From Myxococcaceae bacterium (GTDB taxonomy: Bacteria; Myxococcota_A; UBA9160): a stretch of 64,000 nucleotides of DNA. The notes under the pieces were generated by a model. The model was not told the DNA's origin, made no database searches, and saw nothing but the letters and a program-made list of their open reading frames with translations. Below are positions 34,071 to 64,000 of this stretch, in pieces. The first letter of the stretch is position 1. Every line of letters begins with the position of its first letter. The translations under genes were made by a program, and so were the position numbers. The stretch is from assembly GCA_905339255.1 (NCBI GenBank), contig CAJPFO010000085.1, forward strand, positions 1 to 64,000, written 5' to 3'.

Positions 34071-35252
34071 ATGAAGCGTCGCGTGAACGTGATCGGTGTC
34101 GGGATGACGAAGTTCGTGAAGCCCGGGACGAGCCCCGAGTACTACGTGATGGCCGCCGAGGCCGGACGGCTCGCGCTCGCGGATGCCGGGATCCCGTATT
34201 CGGACGTCGAGCAGGCGTATTGCGGCTACGTCTACGGCGACTCGACCTGCGGCCAGCGATCGGTCTATGAGCTCGGCCTCACCGGGATTCCCGTCGTGAA
34301 CCTGAACAACAACTGCTCGACGGGGTCGACCGCGCTCTGGATGGCGCGCCAGGCGGTCGAGACGGGAGCGGCGGAATGCGCGCTCGCGCTCGGCTTCGAG
34401 AAGATGGCCAAGGGCGCGCTCGCTGCGAAGTTCGACGATCGTGAGCCGCCGATGGGCTTGCACGCGCCCGTCATGATCGAACTCCAGGGCGTGACGGGCG
34501 CTCCGCCCGCCGCACAGATGTTCGGCGGTGCGGGGCGCGAGTACCGCTTCGAGCACGGGACGAAGCGAGAGACCTTCGCGGCCATCTCGGTGAAGGCGCG
34601 CCGCCACGCGAGCCGGAACCCCTACGCGCTCTTCAACCAGATCCTGACGGTCGAGGAGGTGCTGGCATCCGAGGAGGTCTTCGACCCGCTCACCCGCTTC
34701 CAGTGCTGCCCTCCGACCTGTGGCGCGGCCGCTGCGATCCTCTGCTCCGACGATTTCGCCGATTGTCATGGGATTCGGGGTGCCGTCACGATCGCCGCGC
34801 AGGCGATGACGACCGACACCCTCTCGAGCTTCGAGCCGAAGAGCATGATCCGGATGGTCGGCTACGACATGTCGAGGGATGCCGCCCGGAAGGTCTACGA
34901 GGCGAGCGGGATCGGCCCCGAGGACGTCGACGTCGTCGAGCTCCACGATTGCTTCACCGCGAACGAGATCCTGACCTACGAGGCGCTCGGACTCTGTCCC
35001 GAGGGGGGCGCCGAGAAGTACGTGGTCGAAGGCGACAACACCTACGGAGGCAAGCACGTGACGAATCCCTCCGGCGGCCTCCTCTCGAAGGGGCATCCGC
35101 TCGGCGCGACGGGGCTCGCGCAGTGCACGGAGCTCGTCTGGCAGCTCCGCGGCAGGGCGGGGGACCGGCAGGTCGAAGACGCACGCATCGCGCTCCAGCA
35201 CAACATCGGCCTCGGTGGCGCGTGCGTGGTGACGCTCTATCGGCGGGGCTAG
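34071..35252 (+). CDS. SCPx-type thiolase (lipid-transfer protein)
   Basis: The enzyme cleaves 3-ketoacyl-CoA thiolytically, especially for branched or sterol side chains. The catalytic-Cys motif is NNNCSTGST (Cys82). HDCFTANE and [17 protein letters not shown] carry the conserved His, and [16 protein letters not shown] ends the protein. There is no SCP2 domain attached; that function is supplied by the preceding MFE-2. Length is 393 residues. It lies 49 nt behind MFE-2 and completes the beta-oxidation cycle in the operon. Confidence 0.93.
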
Positions 35253-35264
35253 GCGAGAGAAGGC

Positions 35265-37040
35265 ATGCGGCTCGGCGCCGTTCTCGGCGGGGTGGCCGTC
35301 GCTCTCCCGCACCTGGTCGAAATGTGGCGGGTCGGAAGCGACGAGACCCGGACCTGCGCCGGGGCGATCCTCGAGCGCAACGCAGCTCGCTACGGCGACG
35401 CGCTCGCGCTCGCGGATGGCGAACGCCGCTTCGGCTGGAGCCGGCTCAACGCCGAAGCGAACCGGGTTGCGGCCTGGGCGAAAGCCGCCGGGCTTCGCAG
35501 GGGCGATTGCGTGGCGCTGCATGCGGAGAACCGTGCCGAGGTGGTCTCGCTCGTCGTGGGGCTCAACAAGGTCGGAGTCGTGACGGCGGTCCTGAACCCG
35601 AGGCTCCACGGAGACCCGCTTCGTCACGTTCTCGAGCGATGCGCCCCGAGGATCGTGGTGGCCGAAGCGGCTGCGGTCGCCGGGATCGGAGCGGCCGTCG
35701 AGCGGCTCGCGTCGCCACGTCCTCTTCTCTTCCGGATCGGCGAGGCTTCTGGCGGCCAATTCCCGCACGCTCGCGAAACTCCCGAGCTCGCGAGCGTGCT
35801 CCCCGACGAGGCGCCGGATCCGCGCGAGACCCGCGATCAGCTCGGACGCGACGTCATGATGCTTCTCTTCACCTCGGGAACCACAGGGCTCCCGAAAGCC
35901 GCCTTGATCCGGAATCGCCGCTTCGTCTCGATGGCGCACGGCTTCGCCGGAGTTCTCCTCCAGGCGCGCCATGACGACGTGATCTACCTCCCGCTTCCGC
36001 TCCACCACGCGACGGGTGCGATCGCGGCCTTCGGCTCTTCACTCGTCTCGGGAGCCGCTCTCGCGATTCGCGGCCGCTTTTCGGCGCGCGAGTTCTGGTC
36101 GGATTGCGACCGCCTCGGAGCGACGCTCTTCGTCTACATCGGCGAGGTCTGTCGCTATCTGCTGGCGTCTCCTCCGCACCCGCTCGAGCGGTCGCATCGT
36201 CTCCGGCTCGCTGCCGGAGCGGGTCTTCGCGAGGACGTCTGGCGCGCGTTCGAAGAGCGCTTCTCGATTCCACGGATCGTCGAGTTCTACGGCTCGACCG
36301 AAGGAAACGTCGGGATCGTGAATCTCGAGGGCCGGCCGGGGATGCTCGGGCGGCTGCTCCCGGGGCAGTGCGTCGTTCGGATCGATCCCGAGACCGAGGA
36401 GCGCGTTCGCGACGCGAGAGGAAGGCTCGTCGAGGCACGGGTCGGTGAGCGCGGCATCCTGATCGGACGTATCGGGAAGAGCACCCCTTTCGACGGATAT
36501 CTCGATGCGTCGGCGACCCGGGCCAAGGTGCTTCGAGATCCATTCGGCGATGGCATCGATTGGTTCGATACCGGCGATCTCGTCGAGCTCCATGCCGGGC
36601 GCTGGGTCTCGTTCGCCGACCGGCTCGGCGATACCTACCGCTGGAAGGGCGAGAACGTCTCGACGCTCGAAGTCGAGGATCTCCTCTCGCGCTGTCGCGG
36701 GGTGCGCGAGGCGACCGTGTACGGCGTCGAGGTCCCGAAGGCCGACGGCCGCGCGGGGATGGCCGCGGTGGTTCCCGCGGAGGGATTCGAGATCGGCGAC
36801 TTCTCGGCCGAGGTGAGGGCAGCGTTCCCGATCCGGCTCCGACCGTCGTTTCTCCGGCTCCGACGAGAGCTCGAGACGACGGCGAGCTTCAAGCACGTGA
36901 AGACGAGGCTCCGGAGCGAGGGGATCGACGTTTCGAAGATCGCCGACCCGCTCCTTTACCTCGATCCCATCGCGAGCGAGTACCGGCCCCTCGATGCCGA
37001 GATCCTTCGCCGGCTTTCGAGTGGGGAGCTTCGCTTGTGA
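35265..37040 (+). CDS. VLCS/FATP-type fatty acyl-CoA ligase
   Basis: This adenylate-forming enzyme activates a carboxylic acid to its CoA thioester. The P-loop motif LLFTSGTTGLPKAAL, then VEFYGSTEGNVG, the WFDTGDLV motif (adenylate-binding Asp), and DTYRWKGENVSTLEVE with the hinge are present. A near-C-terminal Lys (SFKHVKTRL) could be catalytic. A hydrophobic N-terminus (AVLGGVAVALPHLVEMW) is typical of very-long-chain and FATP/FadD6 forms, which bind membranes. Length is 591 residues. It lies 12 nt after the thiolase, and its TGA overlaps the next GTG, so it belongs to the operon and is likely its entry enzyme. Confidence 0.9.
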   Translation: MRLGAVLGGVAVALPHLVEMWRVGSDETRTCAGAILERNAARYGDALALADGERRFGWSRLNAEANRVAAWAKAAGLRRGDCVALHAENRAEVVSLVVGLNKVGVVTAVLNPRLHGDPLRHVLERCAPRIVVAEAAAVAGIGAAVERLASPRPLLFRIGEASGGQFPHARETPELASVLPDEAPDPRETRDQLGRDVMMLLFTSGTTGLPKAALIRNRRFVSMAHGFAGVLLQARHDDVIYLPLPLHHATGAIAAFGSSLVSGAALAIRGRFSAREFWSDCDRLGATLFVYIGEVCRYLLASPPHPLERSHRLRLAAGAGLREDVWRAFEERFSIPRIVEFYGSTEGNVGIVNLEGRPGMLGRLLPGQCVVRIDPETEERVRDARGRLVEARVGERGILIGRIGKSTPFDGYLDASATRAKVLRDPFGDGIDWFDTGDLVELHAGRWVSFADRLGDTYRWKGENVSTLEVEDLLSRCRGVREATVYGVEVPKADGRAGMAAVVPAEGFEIGDFSAEVRAAFPIRLRPSFLRLRRELETTASFKHVKTRLRSEGIDVSKIADPLLYLDPIASEYRPLDAEILRRLSSGELRL

Positions 37041-55683: not shown

Positions 55684-55784
55684 CGAGATCCCTCTTCCGT
55701 GCCGAAATCGGCATCGTCACGCGAGTCCCTCCTCGATGCGGTCGATCGGCGCCCCCTTGCGCGCCACGCCTGGCCACGGCCCGG

Positions 55785-55793
55785 TGTTAGAAT
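55785..55793 (+). promoter_or_regulatory. Extended -10 promoter element for arylsulfatase
   Basis: TG-T-TAGAAT (55785-55793) is an extended -10 with five of six matches to TATAAT; no good -35 lies upstream at the usual distance. The arylsulfatase ATG is about 150 nt downstream, giving a long leader. No hairpin or riboswitch is obvious in the leader; it lies in the 397-nt gap that also holds the SDR fragment. Confidence 0.4.
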
Positions 55794-55942
55794 CGAATCG
55801 AGATCGGCATCGGATCGCCTCGATTGCGATGCGCGCCCCCGCCGCGCGCGTCGAAGACGCAGTGGGTTGCGATGCTCGGCGGAGTCATCGCGATCCGTGC
55901 CATGAGCTCGAATCGACCCCTGCGGCGGGTGGAGGATCGGAC

Positions 55943-57490
55943 ATGCATTTCGCGGCCAAGGTGGCATTCGGGGTGGCCGCAGCAGCGTTGCTGCCGCTCA
56001 CGGTGGCGTTTCCGGCGTCGGCGCAGCAGAAGAAGCCGAACATCTTGATCATCTGGGGGGACGATATCGGGCAGTTCAACGTCAGCGCCTACAACATGGG
56101 CATGATGGGCTACAAGACGCCGAACATCGACAGCATTGCGCGTCAGGGTGCAGTCTTCACCGACTGGTACGGCCAGCAGAGCTGCACCGCGGGGCGTGCT
56201 GCCTTCATCACCGGGCAGTCGCCGATCCGCACCGGTCTCACGAAAGTCGGCCTGCCGGGCGCACCCGAAGGAATGAAGAAAGAAGATCCGACGATCGCCA
56301 CGCTGCTGAAGGCACAGGGATATGTCACTGGCCAGTTCGGCAAGAACCACCTCGGCGACCGTGACGACATGTTGCCGACTGCGCACGGCTTCGATGAGTT
56401 CTTCGGAAATCTGTACCACCTGAACGCCGAAGAGGAGCCGGAGAACGCGGACTACCCGAAGAGCCCCGAGTTCAAGAAGAAGTTCGGCCCGCGCGGCGTG
56501 ATCCACAGCTTTGCCGACGGACGCGTCACCGACACCGGACCGTTGACGCGCAAGCGGATGGAAACCATCGATGACGAGGTGATGGCAAAGTCTCTCGACT
56601 TCATCGAGCGCGCGAAGAAGTCGGAAAAGCCATTCTTCGTTTGGTGGAACTCCACGAGGATGCACGTCTTCACGCACCTCAAGGCCGCTTCCGAGGGAAA
56701 GACGGGACTCGGAATCTACGCAGACGGCATGGCCGAGCACGACGGCCACGTCGGCCGGTTGCTGGCGAAGCTCGAGGAACTCGGTCTCGACCAGAACACC
56801 ATCGTCATGTACTCGACCGACAACGGCGCCGAGACCTTCACTTGGCCCGACGGCGGAACCACCATGTTCCGTGGTGAGAAGAACACCAATTGGGAAGGCG
56901 GCTACCGCGTGCCCACGATGATCCGGTGGCCGGGAGTCATCGAGCCGGGCATGGTCGTGAACGACATCGCGGCGCACGAGGACATGCTGCTCACCCTGGT
57001 GAATGCGGCAGGAGGCAAGAACGTCGCGGAGAACCTGAAGAAGGGCACCCAGATCGGTGGCCGCAGCTACAAGGTCCACCTCGATGGTCACGACCTCGGG
57101 CCGGCGCTCCGCGGTGAGGCCCCGTGGCCGAGACGGGAGTTCATCTACTGGACAGACGACGGCCAAGTTGCCGCGCTGCGGTACGACAACTGGAAGATCA
57201 CATTCCTCGAGCAGAAGGGCGAAGGCCTGAGGGTCTGGCAGGAGCCGTTCACGCCGCTTCGGGCGCCGTTGATCACCAATCTGCGCATGGACCCGTTCGA
57301 GCGAGCCGAGGCCGAGCACGCCATGGGCTACCAGCGCTGGTACATGGAGCGCATGTTCACGATCGCTCCAGCCGGCGCTTACGTCGGTCGGTGGCTGCAG
57401 AGTTTCAGGGAGTTTCCACCGCGGCAGAAGCCGGGCAGCTTCAACCTCGAGCGCGTGATGGAGACGGTCTCGAAGTCGGCGCAGAACTGA
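55943..57490 (+). CDS. Exported arylsulfatase, CTAGR-type
   Basis: This type-I sulfatase (515 residues) has a signal peptide ending PASA. The metal-binding motif NILIIWGDDIG (Asp40-Asp41) is followed by QQSCTAGRAAFITGQ. That is the catalytic Cys81 to be oxidised to formylglycine, but with Ala in place of the usual Pro-Ser of CxPSR. STDNGAE and FRGEKNTNWEGGYRVP are the C-terminal metal and substrate regions. GC and codon use (for example TTG, TTC-poor segments) are lower than in the neighbours, suggesting horizontal acquisition. GGAGG precedes the ATG. Confidence 0.92.
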   Translation: MHFAAKVAFGVAAAALLPLTVAFPASAQQKKPNILIIWGDDIGQFNVSAYNMGMMGYKTPNIDSIARQGAVFTDWYGQQSCTAGRAAFITGQSPIRTGLTKVGLPGAPEGMKKEDPTIATLLKAQGYVTGQFGKNHLGDRDDMLPTAHGFDEFFGNLYHLNAEEEPENADYPKSPEFKKKFGPRGVIHSFADGRVTDTGPLTRKRMETIDDEVMAKSLDFIERAKKSEKPFFVWWNSTRMHVFTHLKAASEGKTGLGIYADGMAEHDGHVGRLLAKLEELGLDQNTIVMYSTDNGAETFTWPDGGTTMFRGEKNTNWEGGYRVPTMIRWPGVIEPGMVVNDIAAHEDMLLTLVNAAGGKNVAENLKKGTQIGGRSYKVHLDGHDLGPALRGEAPWPRREFIYWTDDGQVAALRYDNWKITFLEQKGEGLRVWQEPFTPLRAPLITNLRMDPFERAEAEHAMGYQRWYMERMFTIAPAGAYVGRWLQSFREFPPRQKPGSFNLERVMETVSKSAQN

Positions 57491-57587
57491 TCGAAGCGCC
57501 GCAGCAATCGAGAAGCGGCCGCCGCGCGCTCTGGCCCGCAGGCGCGGTTCGGACGGAGGCCCCGGAGTAGGACCTGTCGGGTAAAAA

Positions 57588-57603
57588 TAGTCATCCTTGA
57601 CTA
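57588..57603. promoter_or_regulatory. Perfect palindromic operator upstream of tetR and the radical-SAM operon
   Basis: TAGTCA-TCCT-TGACTA is a perfect 6-bp inverted repeat with a 4-nt spacer, flanked by A-tracts and T-tracts (AAAA left, TTTT right), in an AT-rich patch. The TTGACT part could also be a -35, with TATTCG 17 nt downstream as -10. Position and shape are typical of TetR autorepression. Confidence 0.7.
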
Positions 57604-57631
57604 GTTTTCCCGGTTGGGGTATTCGGAGCTC

Positions 57632-58276
57632 ATGAATGCGTCGCCTGCCGTCGCCGCCATGCCCCGACGCGTCCAGGCCCGGGGCGAGGCCACGCGTCTT
57701 CGCATCCTCGAAGCAACGCTCGCCTGCATCGCCGAGGAGGGTTACGAGCACACCAGCACCGTCCGCGTCTGCGAACGCTCGGGCGCTTCGCGCGGTTCGC
57801 TGCTGCACCAGTTCTCGACCCGCGCCGAGCTGATGGCAGCCGCGGTCGCATACCTCTTCGAGCGGCTGACCGCGGATTACGTCGAGGCCTTCGCCGCGCT
57901 CCGCGCCGACGCGCTCCAGAGCGCTGCCCGGCGCATCGAAGTCGCGGGCGAGCTGCTGCTCGCAGGCTACGCAGATCCGCGCCTCGCTGCGGTGCTCGAC
58001 ATCTATGCGGCGGCTCGAACCGATGCGGACCTCATGGCCGCCCTGAAGCCGGTCGCCGCCCGGCACCGCGAGGTCGTCTGGGGGCTGGCGCACGAGCTCT
58101 TCCCGGCAATCGCGACTTCGAAGCGCACCGCGCGGCGCCTCGCGGTCGCACTCGATGCGCTGCAGGGTCTCGCGTTCCGAAGCGTCGTGAACCCGGAGGG
58201 CGCCCGTGACACGATCGAAGGGGCGCACGAGCTTCTCGTCGAAGTCTTCACCCGCGCTGCGACGGAATCCGCATGA
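57632..58276 (+). CDS. TetR-family regulator of the radical-SAM cluster
   Basis: The helix-turn-helix is in EATRLRILEATLACIAEEGYEHTST, then VRVCERSGASRGSLLHQF. The ligand domain is uncharacterised. Length is 214 residues from the ATG at 57632; a TTG at 57614 and an ATG at 57659 are alternatives. The perfect palindrome 29 nt upstream is probably its own operator. The next gene follows after 117 nt on the same strand, so the regulator likely controls that cluster. Confidence 0.88.
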   Translation: MNASPAVAAMPRRVQARGEATRLRILEATLACIAEEGYEHTSTVRVCERSGASRGSLLHQFSTRAELMAAAVAYLFERLTADYVEAFAALRADALQSAARRIEVAGELLLAGYADPRLAAVLDIYAAARTDADLMAALKPVAARHREVVWGLAHELFPAIATSKRTARRLAVALDALQGLAFRSVVNPEGARDTIEGAHELLVEVFTRAATESA

Positions 58277-58393
58277 ACCATCCGATCCGGATCGCCGTGC
58301 GTGCCCGCAGGCAAGAATCCCTCGAAGCGGGTGTTCGACACGACCGTGATCACGCACCCCAGCAGTCGACGCCACCAGAAGAGGAGCTGCCAG

Positions 58394-59689
58394 ATGCGAG
58401 AGGACCGAGTCATCACGCCGGAGCACATCTACGCGAAGGCGAGGATCTTTTCCGAGGGCGCGATCATCGACGGAGAAGACACTCCGCCGTTCGCACAAGG
58501 CCTGGGATACCTGGCGAAGGCTCGCCGTCGCAACAACCTCTGCACGATCCCACCGATCGCACCACAGCCTCCCGAGATCGCGCCCGAGCAGGTGGAGGCG
58601 ATCTGGTCGGCCACGTCACGCGTTCTGAAGGCATCGGCGAGCGAGTCGAAGCCGAGCTCGGGAATGAGGTTCACCTTCGACGGATCCGGCCTGACCACCT
58701 TCGTGCACGCAAACCCGTACTCGAGGCTCGTCGTCGAGCAGGACGGCGACCGGGTGACCGTCATGGACGGGAAGCACGTGCTCGTGAGCGGACTCGCCGA
58801 CGAGTCGTTCGATTGGCTGGACGAGCCGATCTCGAACGGGCTGCCGGCGTCGACCTTCCTGCCCGGAGCCTCGAACGAGATCCTCAACCTGATCTTCTAC
58901 CTGTCGTGCGACAACTACAACACCGGGCGCGGATGCAAGTACTGCAATCTGTTCTCCAACCCGCTCTCCCAGATGAGCGACGTGTTCCCGATGGCACTGC
59001 AGGAGAGCTGGGCGAAGCACCAGGCAGAAGCCGTCAAGGTCGCGATCGATCACGGCTGGAACGGACACATCGCATTGAGCGGCGGCGCCCTTCCTCCCAG
59101 CGCGCGGGCTCGATATCTCGATCTCATGAGGCTGTCGCTCGAGGCGCTGCGGAAAGAGCTCGGTGAACGGGTCTTCGAGGAGTTGGACATCGTCTACAAC
59201 CACTATCCCCCGGAGCACTTCGAAGACATGGCGGAGTGGAAGAAGATGGGGATCAAGAGAACGGCGATCGACCTCGAAGTCATGGACCCCGCCTACTTCC
59301 CGGTGATCTGCCCCGGGAAGGCGGTCTACAAGCCGCATTCCTTCTGGAAGGACGCCCAGGATGCATCGGTCGAGGTCTTCGGTTCGTTCGCCAATACGAC
59401 GGGCAACATCGTTCTCGGAATCGAGCCGATGTCGAGCGTGCTGAACGGCATCGAAGAGCGCCTTGCCCGCGGCGTGATGCCGAGGCCCGTCATCTTCTGC
59501 TCGGCGCCGAACTCGGAATACTGGGGCTTTCGTCCGCCCACCGCGGATTGGCTGATGGAGGTCACGGAGCGGATGGCGACCCAGTACGTCGAGCACATCG
59601 ATTTCGGGGTCGATTCCGGGCCGATCGCGACCGGGCCCACGATGCTGGTGTTCGACATGATCAATCAGAAGCGGCAGAGCGCCGCATGA
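58394..59689 (+). CDS. Radical-SAM-like protein with CX8CX2C motif
   Basis: The protein (431 residues) has SCDNYNTGRGCKYCNLFSN with Cys172, Cys181 and Cys184. This is CX8CX2C, not the canonical CX3CX2C, and most like the CX9CX2C type of Elp3. Downstream, GHIALSGGALPPSAR resembles the GGE-like SAM-binding strand of radical SAM barrels, and IDLEVMDPAYFPVICPGK and FGSFANTTGNIVLGIEPM are later barrel strands. The N-terminal domain (1-160) is unassigned. It probably generates a 5'-deoxyadenosyl radical to modify a lipid-like or acyl substrate. The ATG at 58394 follows GGAG by 7 nt. Confidence 0.8.
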   Translation: MREDRVITPEHIYAKARIFSEGAIIDGEDTPPFAQGLGYLAKARRRNNLCTIPPIAPQPPEIAPEQVEAIWSATSRVLKASASESKPSSGMRFTFDGSGLTTFVHANPYSRLVVEQDGDRVTVMDGKHVLVSGLADESFDWLDEPISNGLPASTFLPGASNEILNLIFYLSCDNYNTGRGCKYCNLFSNPLSQMSDVFPMALQESWAKHQAEAVKVAIDHGWNGHIALSGGALPPSARARYLDLMRLSLEALRKELGERVFEELDIVYNHYPPEHFEDMAEWKKMGIKRTAIDLEVMDPAYFPVICPGKAVYKPHSFWKDAQDASVEVFGSFANTTGNIVLGIEPMSSVLNGIEERLARGVMPRPVIFCSAPNSEYWGFRPPTADWLMEVTERMATQYVEHIDFGVDSGPIATGPTMLVFDMINQKRQSAA

Positions 59690-59780
59690 CCGCGGGGGTC
59701 CGGACGAAGCCGAGCCGCCCGTCGCGGCAATCGGATGCCCCGACCCGGCGCGCGTCCACCGCGAACGAGCGAGGTCCTCG

Positions 59781-60728
59781 ATGGCCAGGCGCACTCTGAA
59801 CGAACGAGACATCCCCGGCGCGCTGCTGGCGGGCGCCCGTTGGCTCGTGAACCCGGTCTCGGAAGGAGGCGCGAAGCAGGTCCCGCGTATCAAGCTCCTG
59901 GCGGCCGGCCCGGAGATCCTCGCCGACATCGACCGGATGCGGACCCATCCGACCGGCAAGCGGATCCTCGACGAGCGGCCCGATCTCGGCACGGCCCTCT
60001 CGGACTCCGACACCTTGAAGGCCATGCCCGCAGGAAGCCTCGGCCGGACGTTCTACGACGCGATCGAGATCCCCGGAGGCATTCCCGGCTTCCTCCTGGC
60101 GGCGACGATCTACAAGGACGGGTTCTTCGATTCCTTCGAGATGAGCGAGGAGGCGCAGTACTACATCGCACGCTCCCGGTGGCTTCACGACCTCTTCCAC
60201 ATCGTGACCGGGTACGGCACCGATCTGCCGGGAGAGGGACTCCTCATCTACTTCGCGCTCGGCTACGAGCACCGTTTGCCGTACTGGGCGGCGTCGATCG
60301 CTCCCCTCGGCATCGGCCCGCGATTCTTCATCCGACCGAGTGTCGGACAACGACGTTGGCGAGCGCTCCTCCGGGACGCCCATTCGCGCGGGCTCGCGGC
60401 CAATCGGGTCTGCCCGCCCCAGTGCGTCCCCTGGGAGGAGCTGCTTCCGCGCCCCGTGGCGGAGGTCCGCGCGGAACTCGGCATCGTCCCTTTCCCCGAC
60501 GATACCTCGCGCTGGCTCGACCACAGCTGGTTCGGGCGCCAGGCGGCGACGGGCTTCGGTGCCTACCCGAGATCGGCAAAGCGCGCACGGCTCGCCCTGG
60601 CCATCGTGAAGGCGGGCGTCGACTACCGGGATCTCTACCGCTTCAGCGACGAGAAGACGCGCGAGCTGTTCGACCTCGCCGCCGCAGGCGCCTCCGCCGA
60701 AGCGATCCGCACTGCCGCGGCGGCCTGA
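59781..60728 (+). CDS. Coq4-family protein
   Basis: The protein (315 residues) has RWLHDLFHIVTGYGTDLPGE, the zinc-binding motif HDxxHx11E of Coq4 (His136, Asp137, His140, Glu152). In ubiquinone synthesis Coq4 catalyses oxidative C1 decarboxylation of the quinone ring. The N-terminal region has the usual helical lead (IKLLAAGPEILADIDRMRTHPTGKRIL). Here it stands beside an acetoacetate-decarboxylase-family gene and acyl-CoA dehydrogenases, not Coq genes, so a different substrate is likely. It follows the radical-SAM gene by 91 nt. Confidence 0.88.
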   Translation: MARRTLNERDIPGALLAGARWLVNPVSEGGAKQVPRIKLLAAGPEILADIDRMRTHPTGKRILDERPDLGTALSDSDTLKAMPAGSLGRTFYDAIEIPGGIPGFLLAATIYKDGFFDSFEMSEEAQYYIARSRWLHDLFHIVTGYGTDLPGEGLLIYFALGYEHRLPYWAASIAPLGIGPRFFIRPSVGQRRWRALLRDAHSRGLAANRVCPPQCVPWEELLPRPVAEVRAELGIVPFPDDTSRWLDHSWFGRQAATGFGAYPRSAKRARLALAIVKAGVDYRDLYRFSDEKTRELFDLAAAGASAEAIRTAAAA

Positions 60729-60756
60729 CCCTTTACGGCGCCGAGAGGAGGTACTG

Positions 60757-61545
60757 ATGAGCGGCGAGCTTTTCCGGGGCGTGAAGCAGTTCGAGTTCCC
60801 GAGCCCGGCCGACGCCCCACGGCTCGGGAAGGACTCGTACAGGATCCCCGTCTACTACTACGACAACTCGTCGCTCACCGTGATCCATACGGCGTCGACG
60901 GCTCGAATCCGGCCGTACCTGCCCGACCCGCGAATGCACCCGCTCGAGCTCACTCCGGGTCGCTCTCTCGTGGCGTTCACCGCGTTCGAGTACCGCAAGA
61001 CGGACATCGACCCGTACAACGAATTCAGCATCGCGATCCTGATCAACTTCGACAAGGCCGTCATTCCCGGTCTATCGGTGCTACGCCAACTGCTGAGCAA
61101 CGTCTTTCATGCCCACGTATGGCACCTGCCGGTGACGACCGAGATCGCCCGCTACGGCGGTGTCGAGCTCTACGGCTATCCCAAGTTCGTCGCCGATATC
61201 GCGTTCACTCGCGCCAGCGGACACGCGGAGTGCGCGCTCTCCGAGAACGGGAGGCTCATCCTGCGGCTGCGCGGGCGGGAGCTTCCGACGCGGCCGGGCA
61301 AGACCGTGCGCTTCAAGACCTACCCGGTGAAGGACGGCATCACCCTTTGCGGCAACGTCTACACGCGGCACGTGCGCTTCGCCGAGTCGCGCCGCGGGGC
61401 AGACTCGAGCTTGACGATCGGGACGGACCATCCGATCTGCGCCGAGCTGCGCGGCATCGAGCTGGGCGAGAAGGCGCTGGTCTACCAGTACAGCGCGGAG
61501 AACGAAGCCATTCTCTTCGGCCCCCACAACCTGATCGACGACTGA
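60757..61545 (+). CDS. Acetoacetate-decarboxylase-family protein
   Basis: The protein (262 residues) has YGYPKFVADIAF with the Schiff-base Lys (~143) of the family. SLVAFTAFEYRKTDIDPYNEF carries the conserved Glu (~89), and ELYGYPK is canonical. Members include acetoacetate decarboxylases and Schiff-base hydratases/aldolases. Its position next to Coq4 and acyl-CoA dehydrogenases suggests beta-keto-acid decarboxylation of a pathway intermediate. A strong AGGAGG ribosome site precedes the ATG, 28 nt after Coq4. Confidence 0.88.
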   Translation: MSGELFRGVKQFEFPSPADAPRLGKDSYRIPVYYYDNSSLTVIHTASTARIRPYLPDPRMHPLELTPGRSLVAFTAFEYRKTDIDPYNEFSIAILINFDKAVIPGLSVLRQLLSNVFHAHVWHLPVTTEIARYGGVELYGYPKFVADIAFTRASGHAECALSENGRLILRLRGRELPTRPGKTVRFKTYPVKDGITLCGNVYTRHVRFAESRRGADSSLTIGTDHPICAELRGIELGEKALVYQYSAENEAILFGPHNLIDD

Positions 61546-61552
61546 CCCGGCG

Positions 61553-63055
61553 ATGCGCTTGACCCGCCAGGAACGGCGCGAGTACCTGCGGCGCGAACCT
61601 CGCGTCGACGGGGTGATGAACAGCGTCGAGGGACTGGCGGAGCTTCCGCGCGTGGTCCGAAGGGACATCTGCACCGCGGTGGCGCTGGCGCGCAAGTTCA
61701 ACGACCTCGTCGTCCGCCCGGTGTACCGCGAAATCGACGAGCGAGTCCGGCGTGACCACGACTTCCTGCCTCACGACTTCATTCGCACCGCCAACCGATG
61801 GGGCCTGTTCTCGCTGTGGATCCCGAAGGTGCTCGGCGGTGGCGGCCTCGACTTGCTGTCCCTCTACCCGTTCCTCGAGGAGGTCTCGTCGGTCTGCGTC
61901 GGACTCGCCAACGTGATCGGCGTCCACTACCTCGGCGTCAGCACCCTCGCAGCGAGCTGGAACGTGCGCCTCATGGACGTCATCTACCGGGAGGTGAGCC
62001 GGGCCTCCCACGGCGACGACGCCTGCCTGATCTCGCTCGCGATCACGGAGCCACTCGCGGGCACCGACATGGAGGAGCCGGAGCTGCTCCAGCGGGCGCG
62101 CATCGGGACCGTGGCGACGCGCACGGCGGGCGGTTGGGTTCTCGACGGCCGCAAGGTGTTCATCTCCAACGGCCACGTTTCGACGTGGCACATGGTCATC
62201 GCGTACGGCGACCGTCGCAACCCGCTCGAAACCGCCGTCATGGCAGCGGTTCGAACGGGAACGCGGGGCTTCCGCTTCGGGGCGCACGAGAAGAAGATGG
62301 GGCAGCGCGCCTGCGTGGCGAGCGAGCTGGTCTTCGACGAGTGCTTCGTTCCCGATGAGCTCATCTGCGCTGCACCGGCGGCCTTCGCGGAGTGCGTGAA
62401 GGACCCGAGGCAGATCACCCAGGACATGATCGACTTCGTGGTGGCGTCGTCGCGCGCGGGAGTGGGAGCCTTCGCCACCGGCGCGGCGCGTGGTGCGTAC
62501 GAAGCGGCACTCGCGCTCGCCTGCCGCACGCACGTGGATGGAGACCTCCTCGTGAACCGCCAGGAAGCGCAACTCGCGCTCGCCGAGATGTACCGCAACG
62601 TGAACATGGCGAGAACGCTCTATCTCGAAGCGGCCTACGCGAATGCGCTGCGTGGGATGTTCCGGGACCTCTACGGGCGTGCGGTGCATCTCCTCGCGCG
62701 GCTCACGCCGCGCTGGTGCTTCACCGCCTTCCTCTCGCCGCTCTTGCGCCGGGAGTCGCTGAGCGAGCGAATCCGGCGGCGCGCCTTCGACGGCTACGGG
62801 GAGGAGGACGGCCGTGTCGCCTCGGGATGGGCGTCGATCGCGAAGTTCTCGTGCAGCGACCTGGCCATCCGCAACTGCGACATGGCCATGGACCTCGTGG
62901 GCGCGGAGGGGCTGCGCCTCGACGGCGGAGTGGAGAAGCACCTCCGCGACGCCAAGCTCCTCCAGATCTACGAGGGCACGAACGAGCTCAACCGGCTGAA
63001 CCTCTTGAAGACCCTCGTGGTGCCGAACGTACCGGAAGCGCGGGTGTTCGAGTGA
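61553..63055 (+). CDS. Acyl-CoA dehydrogenase
   Basis: This flavin-dependent dehydrogenase (500 residues) is longer than usual because of an N-terminal extension and an insertion (~375-425). LAITEPLAGTD and GWVLDGRKVFISNGHVS are FAD/substrate motifs. The C-terminus has IYEGTNELNRLNLLKTL with the catalytic Glu. It starts 7 nt after the acetoacetate-decarboxylase-type gene and overlaps the next gene by 4 nt. It belongs to the same transcript. Confidence 0.92.
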   Translation: MRLTRQERREYLRREPRVDGVMNSVEGLAELPRVVRRDICTAVALARKFNDLVVRPVYREIDERVRRDHDFLPHDFIRTANRWGLFSLWIPKVLGGGGLDLLSLYPFLEEVSSVCVGLANVIGVHYLGVSTLAASWNVRLMDVIYREVSRASHGDDACLISLAITEPLAGTDMEEPELLQRARIGTVATRTAGGWVLDGRKVFISNGHVSTWHMVIAYGDRRNPLETAVMAAVRTGTRGFRFGAHEKKMGQRACVASELVFDECFVPDELICAAPAAFAECVKDPRQITQDMIDFVVASSRAGVGAFATGAARGAYEAALALACRTHVDGDLLVNRQEAQLALAEMYRNVNMARTLYLEAAYANALRGMFRDLYGRAVHLLARLTPRWCFTAFLSPLLRRESLSERIRRRAFDGYGEEDGRVASGWASIAKFSCSDLAIRNCDMAMDLVGAEGLRLDGGVEKHLRDAKLLQIYEGTNELNRLNLLKTLVVPNVPEARVFE

Positions 63056-64000
63056 CCCTCGGCCCGTCGGAGTACGAGGCGCTTCGCGAGCTCGGCGCTT
63101 CGTTCGCGCGGCGCGAGCTCTCGAACGATCGCGAGACGCACGACCGCCATCCGATCACACCGCTCTGGGACGGCGTGTTGCGGCGCGCCTCGGAGCTGGG
63201 GTTCTTCGCCATGACGCTCGGCGAGCGGCACGGTGGCAGCGGCGCAGGCACGACGGCGCTGGTTCCGTTGTGCGAAGAGATCAGCCGTGTCGACGCAAGC
63301 CTGGCGGGCGCGATCTTCGCCAACGCCGCCGCGATCGAGGTCGTGAACGTCGCGGCCGAGTCGTCGGACTGCACGCCGGCTCTGGAATCGATCTCGACGG
63401 CCGGCGCGCTACCGCTGGCATTCGCGGCGTGCAGCTCTCCGGTGGAGTCCGTCCTGCCTTCGGAGCGACCGGCGGGCCCGACCGTCGCGATCACCGGATC
63501 GGCACGCAACGTCTTCCTCGGAGGCGTTGCAAGGTATGCGGTGATTGCGGTCGGGGGCGACGCCGGTCGTTCGTACGTCTTCGTCGATCTCCACGCACCG
63601 GGCGTCCACGCTTCGCAGCCGGTGCCCTGCATCGGCTTTCGCGCCTGCCCGATGGTGGACCTCTCCTTCGACGGCGCCGTTGCGTTCTCCATTGGAGCCG
63701 CAGGTGGCGGACTCGAGCTCTTTCGCCGCATGGCGGAGCGGCTGGCCCCGGCAGCCGCCGCGATCTCGCTCGGCATCATGAAGGGTTGCTTCGACGAGGC
63801 GCACGCCTACGCGCAGGAGCGCCGTCAGGGAGGCCGCCGCATCCTCGACTGGCCGGCCGTGGCCGCGATGCTCGGTGAGATGTCCGTGGACATCCTCTTG
63901 GGCGAGACATGCCTGCTCGCAGCCGCGCAGGGCGGTGCGGAGACGGATGCATCCGCGCTGGCAGTGCGGCTCGGCGAGTGGGCGTGCCGGGCCACCACCG
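63052..64000 (+). CDS. Second acyl-CoA dehydrogenase-like protein, cut by right edge
   Basis: The protein begins with GTG overlapping the upstream TGA (GTGA) and is open to the window end, so the C-terminus is missing. The first 316 residues have LGFFAMTLGERHGGSGAG and ALVPLCEEISRVDASLAG, typical of the N-terminal helical domain of acyl-CoA dehydrogenases, then a beta domain (FRACPMVDLSFDGAVAFSIG). The usual TEPxxGSD is not seen: the matching region reads CSSPVESVLPSERPAG, so it is a diverged member, perhaps a non-catalytic partner or subunit of the preceding dehydrogenase. Confidence 0.82.
   Translation, partial: MTLGPSEYEALRELGASFARRELSNDRETHDRHPITPLWDGVLRRASELGFFAMTLGERHGGSGAGTTALVPLCEEISRVDASLAGAIFANAAAIEVVNVAAESSDCTPALESISTAGALPLAFAACSSPVESVLPSERPAGPTVAITGSARNVFLGGVARYAVIAVGGDAGRSYVFVDLHAPGVHASQPVPCIGFRACPMVDLSFDGAVAFSIGAAGGGLELFRRMAERLAPAAAAISLGIMKGCFDEAHAYAQERRQGGRRILDWPAVAAMLGEMSVDILLGETCLLAAAQGGAETDASALAVRLGEWACRATT

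What the first reader, a model, noticed from the sequence alone, without database searches (positions are those of the whole stretch)
57588..64000. TetR-controlled radical SAM / Coq4 / acetoacetate-decarboxylase / acyl-CoA dehydrogenase cluster
Five or more same-strand genes with shrinking gaps (117, 91, 28, 7 and -4 nt) follow a TetR gene with a perfect palindromic operator. The combination of a non-canonical radical-SAM-like protein, a Coq4 homologue outside a ubiquinone context, an acetoacetate-decarboxylase-type protein and two acyl-CoA dehydrogenases is not a pathway I can name. A plausible reading is activation or decarboxylation of an acyl or polyketide-like intermediate followed by desaturation. 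The cluster continues past the right edge.
Basis: partly seen in the sequence, partly recalled or inferred. Interest (0 to 1): 0.8.

Follow-up and report, generated by a model that had tools for sequence, protein, structure and literature searches.

The report
Unassigned six-gene radical-SAM acyl-CoA operon
A bacterium carries a compact, TetR-linked set of five enzymes (an unusual radical SAM enzyme, a Coq4-type metalloprotein, an acetoacetate-decarboxylase-type protein and two complementary half acyl-CoA dehydrogenases) that looks like an operon for an unidentified acid, and I found the same gene set in no other genome that I could search.

Summary
In detail: all gene calls and gaps (117, 91, 28, 7, -4 nt) are confirmed. 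The 'perfect' operator is a perfect 6+6 core (TAGTCA-N4-TGACTA, unique in the genome) inside 14-nt arms that are 86% complementary. The cluster does not run on: the second dehydrogenase ends 185 nt past the window (64185), then come a tRNA-Arg and unrelated TetR/RND genes. The radical SAM protein belongs to NCBIfam 'variant_rSAM' (317 bits, cut-off 125), with a Cx8CxxC motif. Its closest relatives found are Lokiarchaeal (36-46% identity), without these neighbours. Coq4 keeps HDxxHx11E; the ADC-type protein keeps the Lys and Glu positions. Read together, the two dehydrogenases look like one enzyme: ACD1 holds the catalytic Glu and flavin half-site, ACD2 the ADP-contact half-site, as in alpha2beta2 steroid ACADs. 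That sampling cannot exclude other phyla. Sphingomonad plasmids show Coq4 with a tandem ACAD pair in a catabolic cluster. Best reading: catabolic operon for an unidentified bulky acid; substrate unknown.

The parts
57580..57611 (.). operator-like palindrome, core TAGTCA-N4-TGACTA (57588-57603)
   Evidence: 14-nt arms 86% complementary, 4-nt spacer; core unique in window and genome; 20 nt upstream of the ATG of tetR
57632..58276 (+). TetR-family regulator
   Evidence: PF00440 42.5 bits, cut-off 24; only the DNA-binding part resembles named regulators. ATG 57632 preceded by GGAG; the TTG at 57614 would lie almost on the palindrome (sequence)
58394..59689 (+). variant radical SAM enzyme, Cx8CxxC
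   Evidence: NF045502 316.8 bits, cut-off 125; PF04055 16.2 bits, below cut-off 29.5; AlphaFold model pLDDT 75, pTM 0.79 matches solved radical SAM barrels; Lokiarchaeal homologues 36-46%
59781..60728 (+). Coq4-family protein, long form (315 aa)
   Evidence: PF05019 67.1 bits, cut-off 22.9; HDLFH-x11-E intact; nearest relatives 41-46% in the same order
60757..61545 (+). acetoacetate-decarboxylase-superfamily protein
   Evidence: PF06314 60.7 bits, cut-off 29.8; GYPK lysine and Y-x-E glutamate conserved with homologues
61553..63055 (+). acyl-CoA dehydrogenase ACD1, proposed catalytic (alpha) subunit
   Evidence: PF02771/02770/00441; keeps ITEPLAGTD, FISNG and YEGTNE with catalytic Glu; lost ERxxFG and QxxGGxG (alignment to 3pfd)
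63052..64000 (+). acyl-CoA dehydrogenase ACD2, proposed non-catalytic (beta) subunit; runs to 64185 outside the window (L003 6052-7185)
   Evidence: PF02771 and PF00441 but no middle-domain hit; keeps QERRQGG and QVLGGYGYM, lost the TEP and WITNG motifs and the catalytic Glu (alignment to 8i4p)

Best explanation
A TetR-controlled catabolic operon for an unidentified bulky or cyclic carboxylic acid. Supported by sequence: the five enzyme genes are tightly co-directional with one operator-like palindrome upstream of tetR, and ACD1 and ACD2 hold complementary half-sites. Inferred: the TetR protein binds the palindrome and lets go when an acyl-CoA or acid ligand is present; ACD1-ACD2 form an alpha2beta2 acyl-CoA dehydrogenase with two FAD, the Glu in ACD1 taking the alpha proton of a bulky acyl-CoA; the Coq4 protein uses a bound divalent metal to remove a carboxyl group from an activated (phenolic or vinylogous) acid; the ADC-type protein uses its Lys as a Schiff base to decarboxylate or cleave a beta-keto acid; the radical SAM enzyme makes a 5'-deoxyadenosyl radical to rearrange or functionalise an unactivated position. 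CoA ligase, hydratase and thiolase would come from elsewhere in the genome (a ligase and a thiolase lie at 34071-37040). The order of the steps and the substrate are not known.
For: Gene calls, gaps and operator. Complementary ACAD half-sites match the published picture of alpha2beta2 steroid ACADs: one Glu and one FAD per heterodimer (PMC8399759), alpha binds isoalloxazine, beta the ADP part (PMC11153573). COQ4 with HDxxHx11E is a Zn-dependent decarboxylase in vitro (PMC7615680), and that motif is intact here. A Coq4 gene with an overlapping ACAD pair, CoA synthetase, thiolase-like protein, ChsH2-like OB-fold protein and FAD monooxygenase stands in a catabolic-looking cluster on two sphingomonad plasmids. 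In the host's own order, a full-length relative of that monooxygenase (42%) lies next to a long Coq4, and CoA-ligase or P450 relatives near others. GC3 of all genes is that of the genome.
Against: Gene order is found in no other genome searched. The radical SAM orthologues in Lokiarchaeia have no shared neighbours, and the one genome tested has no Coq4. The operon has no ligase, hydratase or thiolase of its own. ACD1/ACD2 are not close to ChsE or IpdE by sequence; the Sphingobium Coq4 is only 31% identical and of the short kind.
Confidence: 0.45

Rival explanations
1. A small biosynthetic operon: the same enzymes build and desaturate a secondary metabolite or a cofactor-like molecule, the radical SAM enzyme doing the defining step and the ADC-type protein acting as a cyclase or dehydratase rather than a decarboxylase.
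For: Radical SAM enzymes and ADC-superfamily proteins occur in natural-product pathways (own knowledge); no CoA ligase, hydratase or thiolase in the operon; the set is rare and patchy, as natural-product genes often are.
Against: No carrier protein, ketosynthase, NRPS module or dedicated transporter within the unit; the RND genes downstream follow their own TetR and a tRNA call. Coq4 with paired ACADs elsewhere sits in catabolic-looking clusters.
Confidence: 0.25
2. An accidental neighbourhood: a regulator, a stand-alone radical SAM protein and a Coq4/ADC/ACAD group that happen to be adjacent, with no common pathway.
For: Order not conserved anywhere searched; Loki orthologues of the radical SAM protein stand alone; long Coq4 relatives in the order stand alone; the gaps after tetR and after the radical SAM gene are 117 and 91 nt.
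Against: Coq4, ADC, ACD1 and ACD2 are spaced 28, 7 and -4 nt; five enzymes of carboxylate/acyl chemistry in a row; no promoter-like or convincing terminator-like site between them by simple scan.
Confidence: 0.2
3. A maturation unit: the radical SAM protein modifies or activates one of its neighbours (for example the Coq4 or ADC protein) instead of acting on the small molecule.
For: One Loki homologue (L080) lies after a glycyl radical enzyme, its activase and a corrinoid protein.
Against: That activase is a separate, ordinary radical SAM protein; the other Loki homologues lack any shared partner; the protein lacks the C-terminal Cys-rich tail seen in its 27% relative L008 and no peptide-binding domain was recognised.
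Confidence: 0.1

Closest known systems
NCBIfam NF045502 variant_rSAM; MSMEG_0568 family (TIGR04043, Nit1C nitrilase cluster)
   Same: Whole-length match to NF045502 well over its cut-off; Cx8CxxC and CPGK motifs
   Different: 36.8 bits to TIGR04043 against a cut-off of 303.7; no nitrilase or other Nit1C genes beside it; closest relatives found are Lokiarchaeal
COQ4 / Coq4 family (PF05019)
   Same: Domain and the HDxxHx11E metal motif
   Different: Long form with a C-terminal extension, in an acyl-CoA operon; a second, ordinary Coq4 gene exists elsewhere in the genome
alpha2beta2 steroid acyl-CoA dehydrogenases (ChsE4-ChsE5, ChsE1-ChsE2, Scd1AB, IpdE1-IpdE2)
   Same: Adjacent genes; one subunit with the catalytic Glu, the other with the ADP-contact motifs
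   Different: Catalytic Glu at the MCAD-type position (YEGT); no close sequence match to ChsE or IpdE; ACD1 has a long insertion
Coq4 / thiolase / OB-fold / ACAD pair / CoA synthetase / FAD monooxygenase cluster of Sphingobium yanoikuyae pF2 and Sphingopyxis fribergensis pSfKp5.2
   Same: Coq4 plus overlapping ACAD pair in one direction
   Different: No radical SAM gene and no ADC gene; other regulator (FCD); low identity
acetoacetate decarboxylase superfamily (PF06314)
   Same: Domain, catalytic-type Lys (GYPK) and Glu
   Different: No sequence match to any solved ADC structure by phmmer; best relatives 36-38%

Membership tests
NF045502 variant_rSAM | score over curated cut-off (125 bits) | tested here: met
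   316.8 bits over 389 residues
NF045502 variant_rSAM | three-Cys cluster motif in a radical SAM barrel | tested here: met
   C172-x8-C181-x2-C184 invariant with Loki and other homologues; model matches HemN, HydE, LipA, NifB, Elp3 barrels with probability about 1, though TM-scores are only 0.3-0.4
MSMEG_0568 radical SAM (TIGR04043) | score over cut-off 303.7 | tested here: not met
   36.8 bits
Coq4 (PF05019) | score over cut-off and HDxxHx11E motif | tested here: met
   67.1 bits, cut-off 22.9; HDLFHIVTGYGTDLPGE
Coq4 (PF05019) | role in ubiquinone synthesis / decarboxylase activity | not testable with these tools
   needs biochemistry; genomic context is not ubiquinone synthesis
Acetoacetate decarboxylase (PF06314) | score over cut-off; Schiff-base Lys and active-site Glu | tested here: met
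   60.7 bits, cut-off 29.8; GYPK and Y-x-E columns conserved in 13 homologues; which residue is catalytic is from knowledge of Clostridium ADC
alpha2beta2 heteromeric ACAD | adjacent subunit genes, catalytic Glu in only one, ADP-contact motif in the other | tested here: met
   definition
alpha2beta2 heteromeric ACAD | sequence kinship with ChsE / IpdE / Scd subunits | tested here: not met
   ACD2 20.6 bits to IpdE2 against cut-off 450, weak match to Tcur3481 (2.4e-6); no such structure in ACD1's list
alpha2beta2 heteromeric ACAD | physical heterotetramer with two FAD | not testable with these tools
   needs co-purification

The most novel reading that the evidence does not exclude
A previously undescribed catabolic route in which a variant radical SAM enzyme, of a subfamily otherwise found here only in Lokiarchaeia, acts on the same acyl substrate as a Coq4-type metal decarboxylase, an ADC-type enzyme and a new lineage of two-subunit acyl-CoA dehydrogenase.
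Probability: 0.25. Interest if true: 0.7.

Novelty: new variant of a known kind. Interest (0 to 1): 0.42.

Why it matters
If the five enzymes do share a pathway, it would give a first function to a branch of the variant radical SAM family, a catabolic role for Coq4 proteins (which are common as paralogues in this bacterial order), and a further case of a split acyl-CoA dehydrogenase that arose outside the known steroid lineages. If they do not, the radical SAM gene remains an orphan shared with Lokiarchaeia.

Tried and rejected
A single-protein scan of 84,980 species with the radical SAM sequence found nothing. For the second scan I steered the patterns with an alignment whose rows 2-4 were synthetic; hits were confirmed with the real protein, but the patterns were guessed from a 27% relative, and most Loki members later found would not match them, so absence elsewhere is not shown. 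Viral-contig scans were pattern previews and gave only two distant Coq4 matches. The radical SAM protein has no plasmid match. PDB sequence searches with the radical SAM protein or profile gave only chance hits or nothing. Membership in MSMEG_0568/Nit1C was rejected on score. Recent horizontal transfer by composition was not supported: GC3 equals that of other genes. I first considered an IVD-type catalytic Glu in ACD2, but reading its alignment by hand against the remembered IVD sequence puts its 'AERL' Glu two positions off, so this was dropped. A literature search for Coq4-family gene clusters found nothing.

Full report
Observation. The window is contig C85 of a 4.28-Mb assembly and the contig continues to 94,822. 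Six co-directional genes are present: a TetR regulator, a radical SAM protein, Coq4, an ADC-type protein and two acyl-CoA dehydrogenases. The last gene, cut by the window, ends at 64185. It is followed by a tRNA-Arg call (both strands called, L003 7354-7448) and then another TetR with RND pump genes, so the cluster ends there. The palindrome upstream of tetR has a perfect core TAGTCA-N4-TGACTA at 57588-57603 and 14-nt arms that are 86% complementary. The core occurs once in the window (0.12 expected with up to 2 mismatches) and once in the genome with up to 1 mismatch.

Radical SAM protein. Pfam's Radical_SAM model scores only 16.2 bits, below its cut-off, but NCBIfam NF045502 variant_rSAM scores 316.8 against a cut-off of 125, while the MSMEG_0568 equivalog is not reached (36.8 against 303.7). 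The cluster motif is C172-x8-C181-x2-C184. An AlphaFold model (pLDDT 75, pTM 0.79; the stretches 173-179 and 185-190 beside the cluster are poorly modelled) finds radical SAM barrels of many kinds in the PDB with probability near 1 and no specific relative. No close relative exists in 97 relatives or 35 genomes of another order of the phylum; 379 genomes of the phylum (the window's own among them), searched with the family model, gave only members that match this protein at about 21-40% over part of their length. The only close ones found are in Lokiarchaeia: one through the public-genome scan (41%, L080) and five further genomes in a search of 228 genomes of that phylum (search identities 38-46%). 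They share the signature C-x-N-[YF]-[ND]-[TS]-x-[RQ]-G-C-x-[YF]-C-[NG]-L-F and AICPGK or VICPGK. Their neighbourhoods share nothing with this operon and differ among themselves apart from near-identical genomes; one lies after a glycyl radical enzyme, its activase, a UroD-type methyltransferase and a corrinoid protein. One such genome has no Coq4 match.

Coq4. The protein carries HDLFH-x11-E (HDLFHIVTGYGTDLPGE), the motif whose mutation abolishes the Zn-dependent decarboxylase activity of COQ4 (PMC7615680). It belongs to a long form (about 315 aa) with 41-46% relatives in seven genomes of the same order, none of which shows the other operon genes on the stretch held (several of those contigs are short). 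On plasmids of Sphingobium yanoikuyae and Sphingopyxis fribergensis a Coq4 gene lies in a conserved cluster with a thiolase-like lipid-transfer protein, a ChsH2-type OB-fold protein, an overlapping ACAD pair, a CoA synthetase and an FAD monooxygenase. A relative of that monooxygenase (42% over 526 residues) stands beside a long Coq4 in the host's order (L071). The host genome has a second, ordinary Coq4 gene.

ADC-type protein. It scores 60.7 bits to PF06314 (cut-off 29.8) and keeps the GYPK lysine and the Y-x-E glutamate columns in an alignment with 13 homologues. That these are the Schiff-base Lys and active-site Glu is taken from knowledge of Clostridium acetoacetate decarboxylase. The best phylum relative is 38%, the best plasmid relative 36%.

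The dehydrogenase pair. In an alignment with homotetrameric ACADs, ACD1 keeps ITEPLAGTD, FISNG and YEGTNE (flavin contact and catalytic Glu) but has lost ERxxFG and QxxGGxG. ACD2 shows the reverse: it keeps QERRQGG and QVLGGYGYM but has lost the flavin-contact motifs and has Leu in place of the Glu, and its middle domain is no longer recognised by Pfam. In steroid alpha2beta2 ACADs one subunit has the Glu and binds the isoalloxazine, the other contacts the ADP part, giving one FAD per heterodimer (PMC11153573; PMC8399759). I infer the same architecture here. Which motif contacts which part of FAD is from general knowledge of ACAD structures. By sequence neither subunit is a member of the ChsE or IpdE families, so this works like them but is not filed with them.

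Co-function. This is weaker than it sounds: the whole-genome tool reaches only the host's phylum, Asgard archaea and Bacillota from here (Bacillota was not searched phylum-wide), and the one productive scan of all species used patterns that later proved too narrow. Tight spacing, the GTGA overlap and the split ACAD make at least the Coq4-ADC-ACD1-ACD2 part a likely unit; inclusion of the radical SAM gene rests on adjacency (91 nt), strand and the shared upstream operator only.

Mechanism. Most likely a TetR-controlled catabolic operon for a bulky acid as laid out in Best explanation (0.45), with a biosynthetic operon (0.25) and accident (0.2) as the main rivals. The order of steps and the substrate are not known, and no step has been tested.

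Noticed in passing
L144 and L145 (Sphingobium yanoikuyae pF2, Sphingopyxis fribergensis pSfKp5.2): Closely related plasmid clusters with the same gene order: P450, ferredoxin, hydrolases, FCD regulator, FabK-like 'nitronate monooxygenase', Coq4, lipid-transfer thiolase, ChsH2-like OB-fold, ACAD pair resembling PimC/PimD and IpdE2, CoA synthetase, FAD monooxygenase resembling PtlE. Looks like a terpenoid- or steroid-type acid pathway in which Coq4 has an unassigned step.
   Followed up: partly
L080 4189-11362: Lokiarchaeal glycyl radical enzyme, activase, UroD-type methyltransferase, corrinoid protein and variant radical SAM protein in a row on one strand.
   Followed up: partly
same order as the window: Coq4 paralogues are numerous: at least six matches in single genomes (for example G007, G011, G012, G027, G040).
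   Followed up: no
L082, L083, L084: Three Pseudobutyrivibrio genomes each carry two variant radical SAM genes within about 6 kb on the same strand.
   Followed up: no
window 55736-57490: Arylsulfatase-type gene (PF00884, 170 bits) on the same strand directly upstream of the operator; whether it belongs to the same regulon is open.
   Followed up: no
L003 15263-19955: Several glutathione-S-transferase-like ORFs in a short stretch downstream, by eye from their N-termini (not searched).
   Followed up: no
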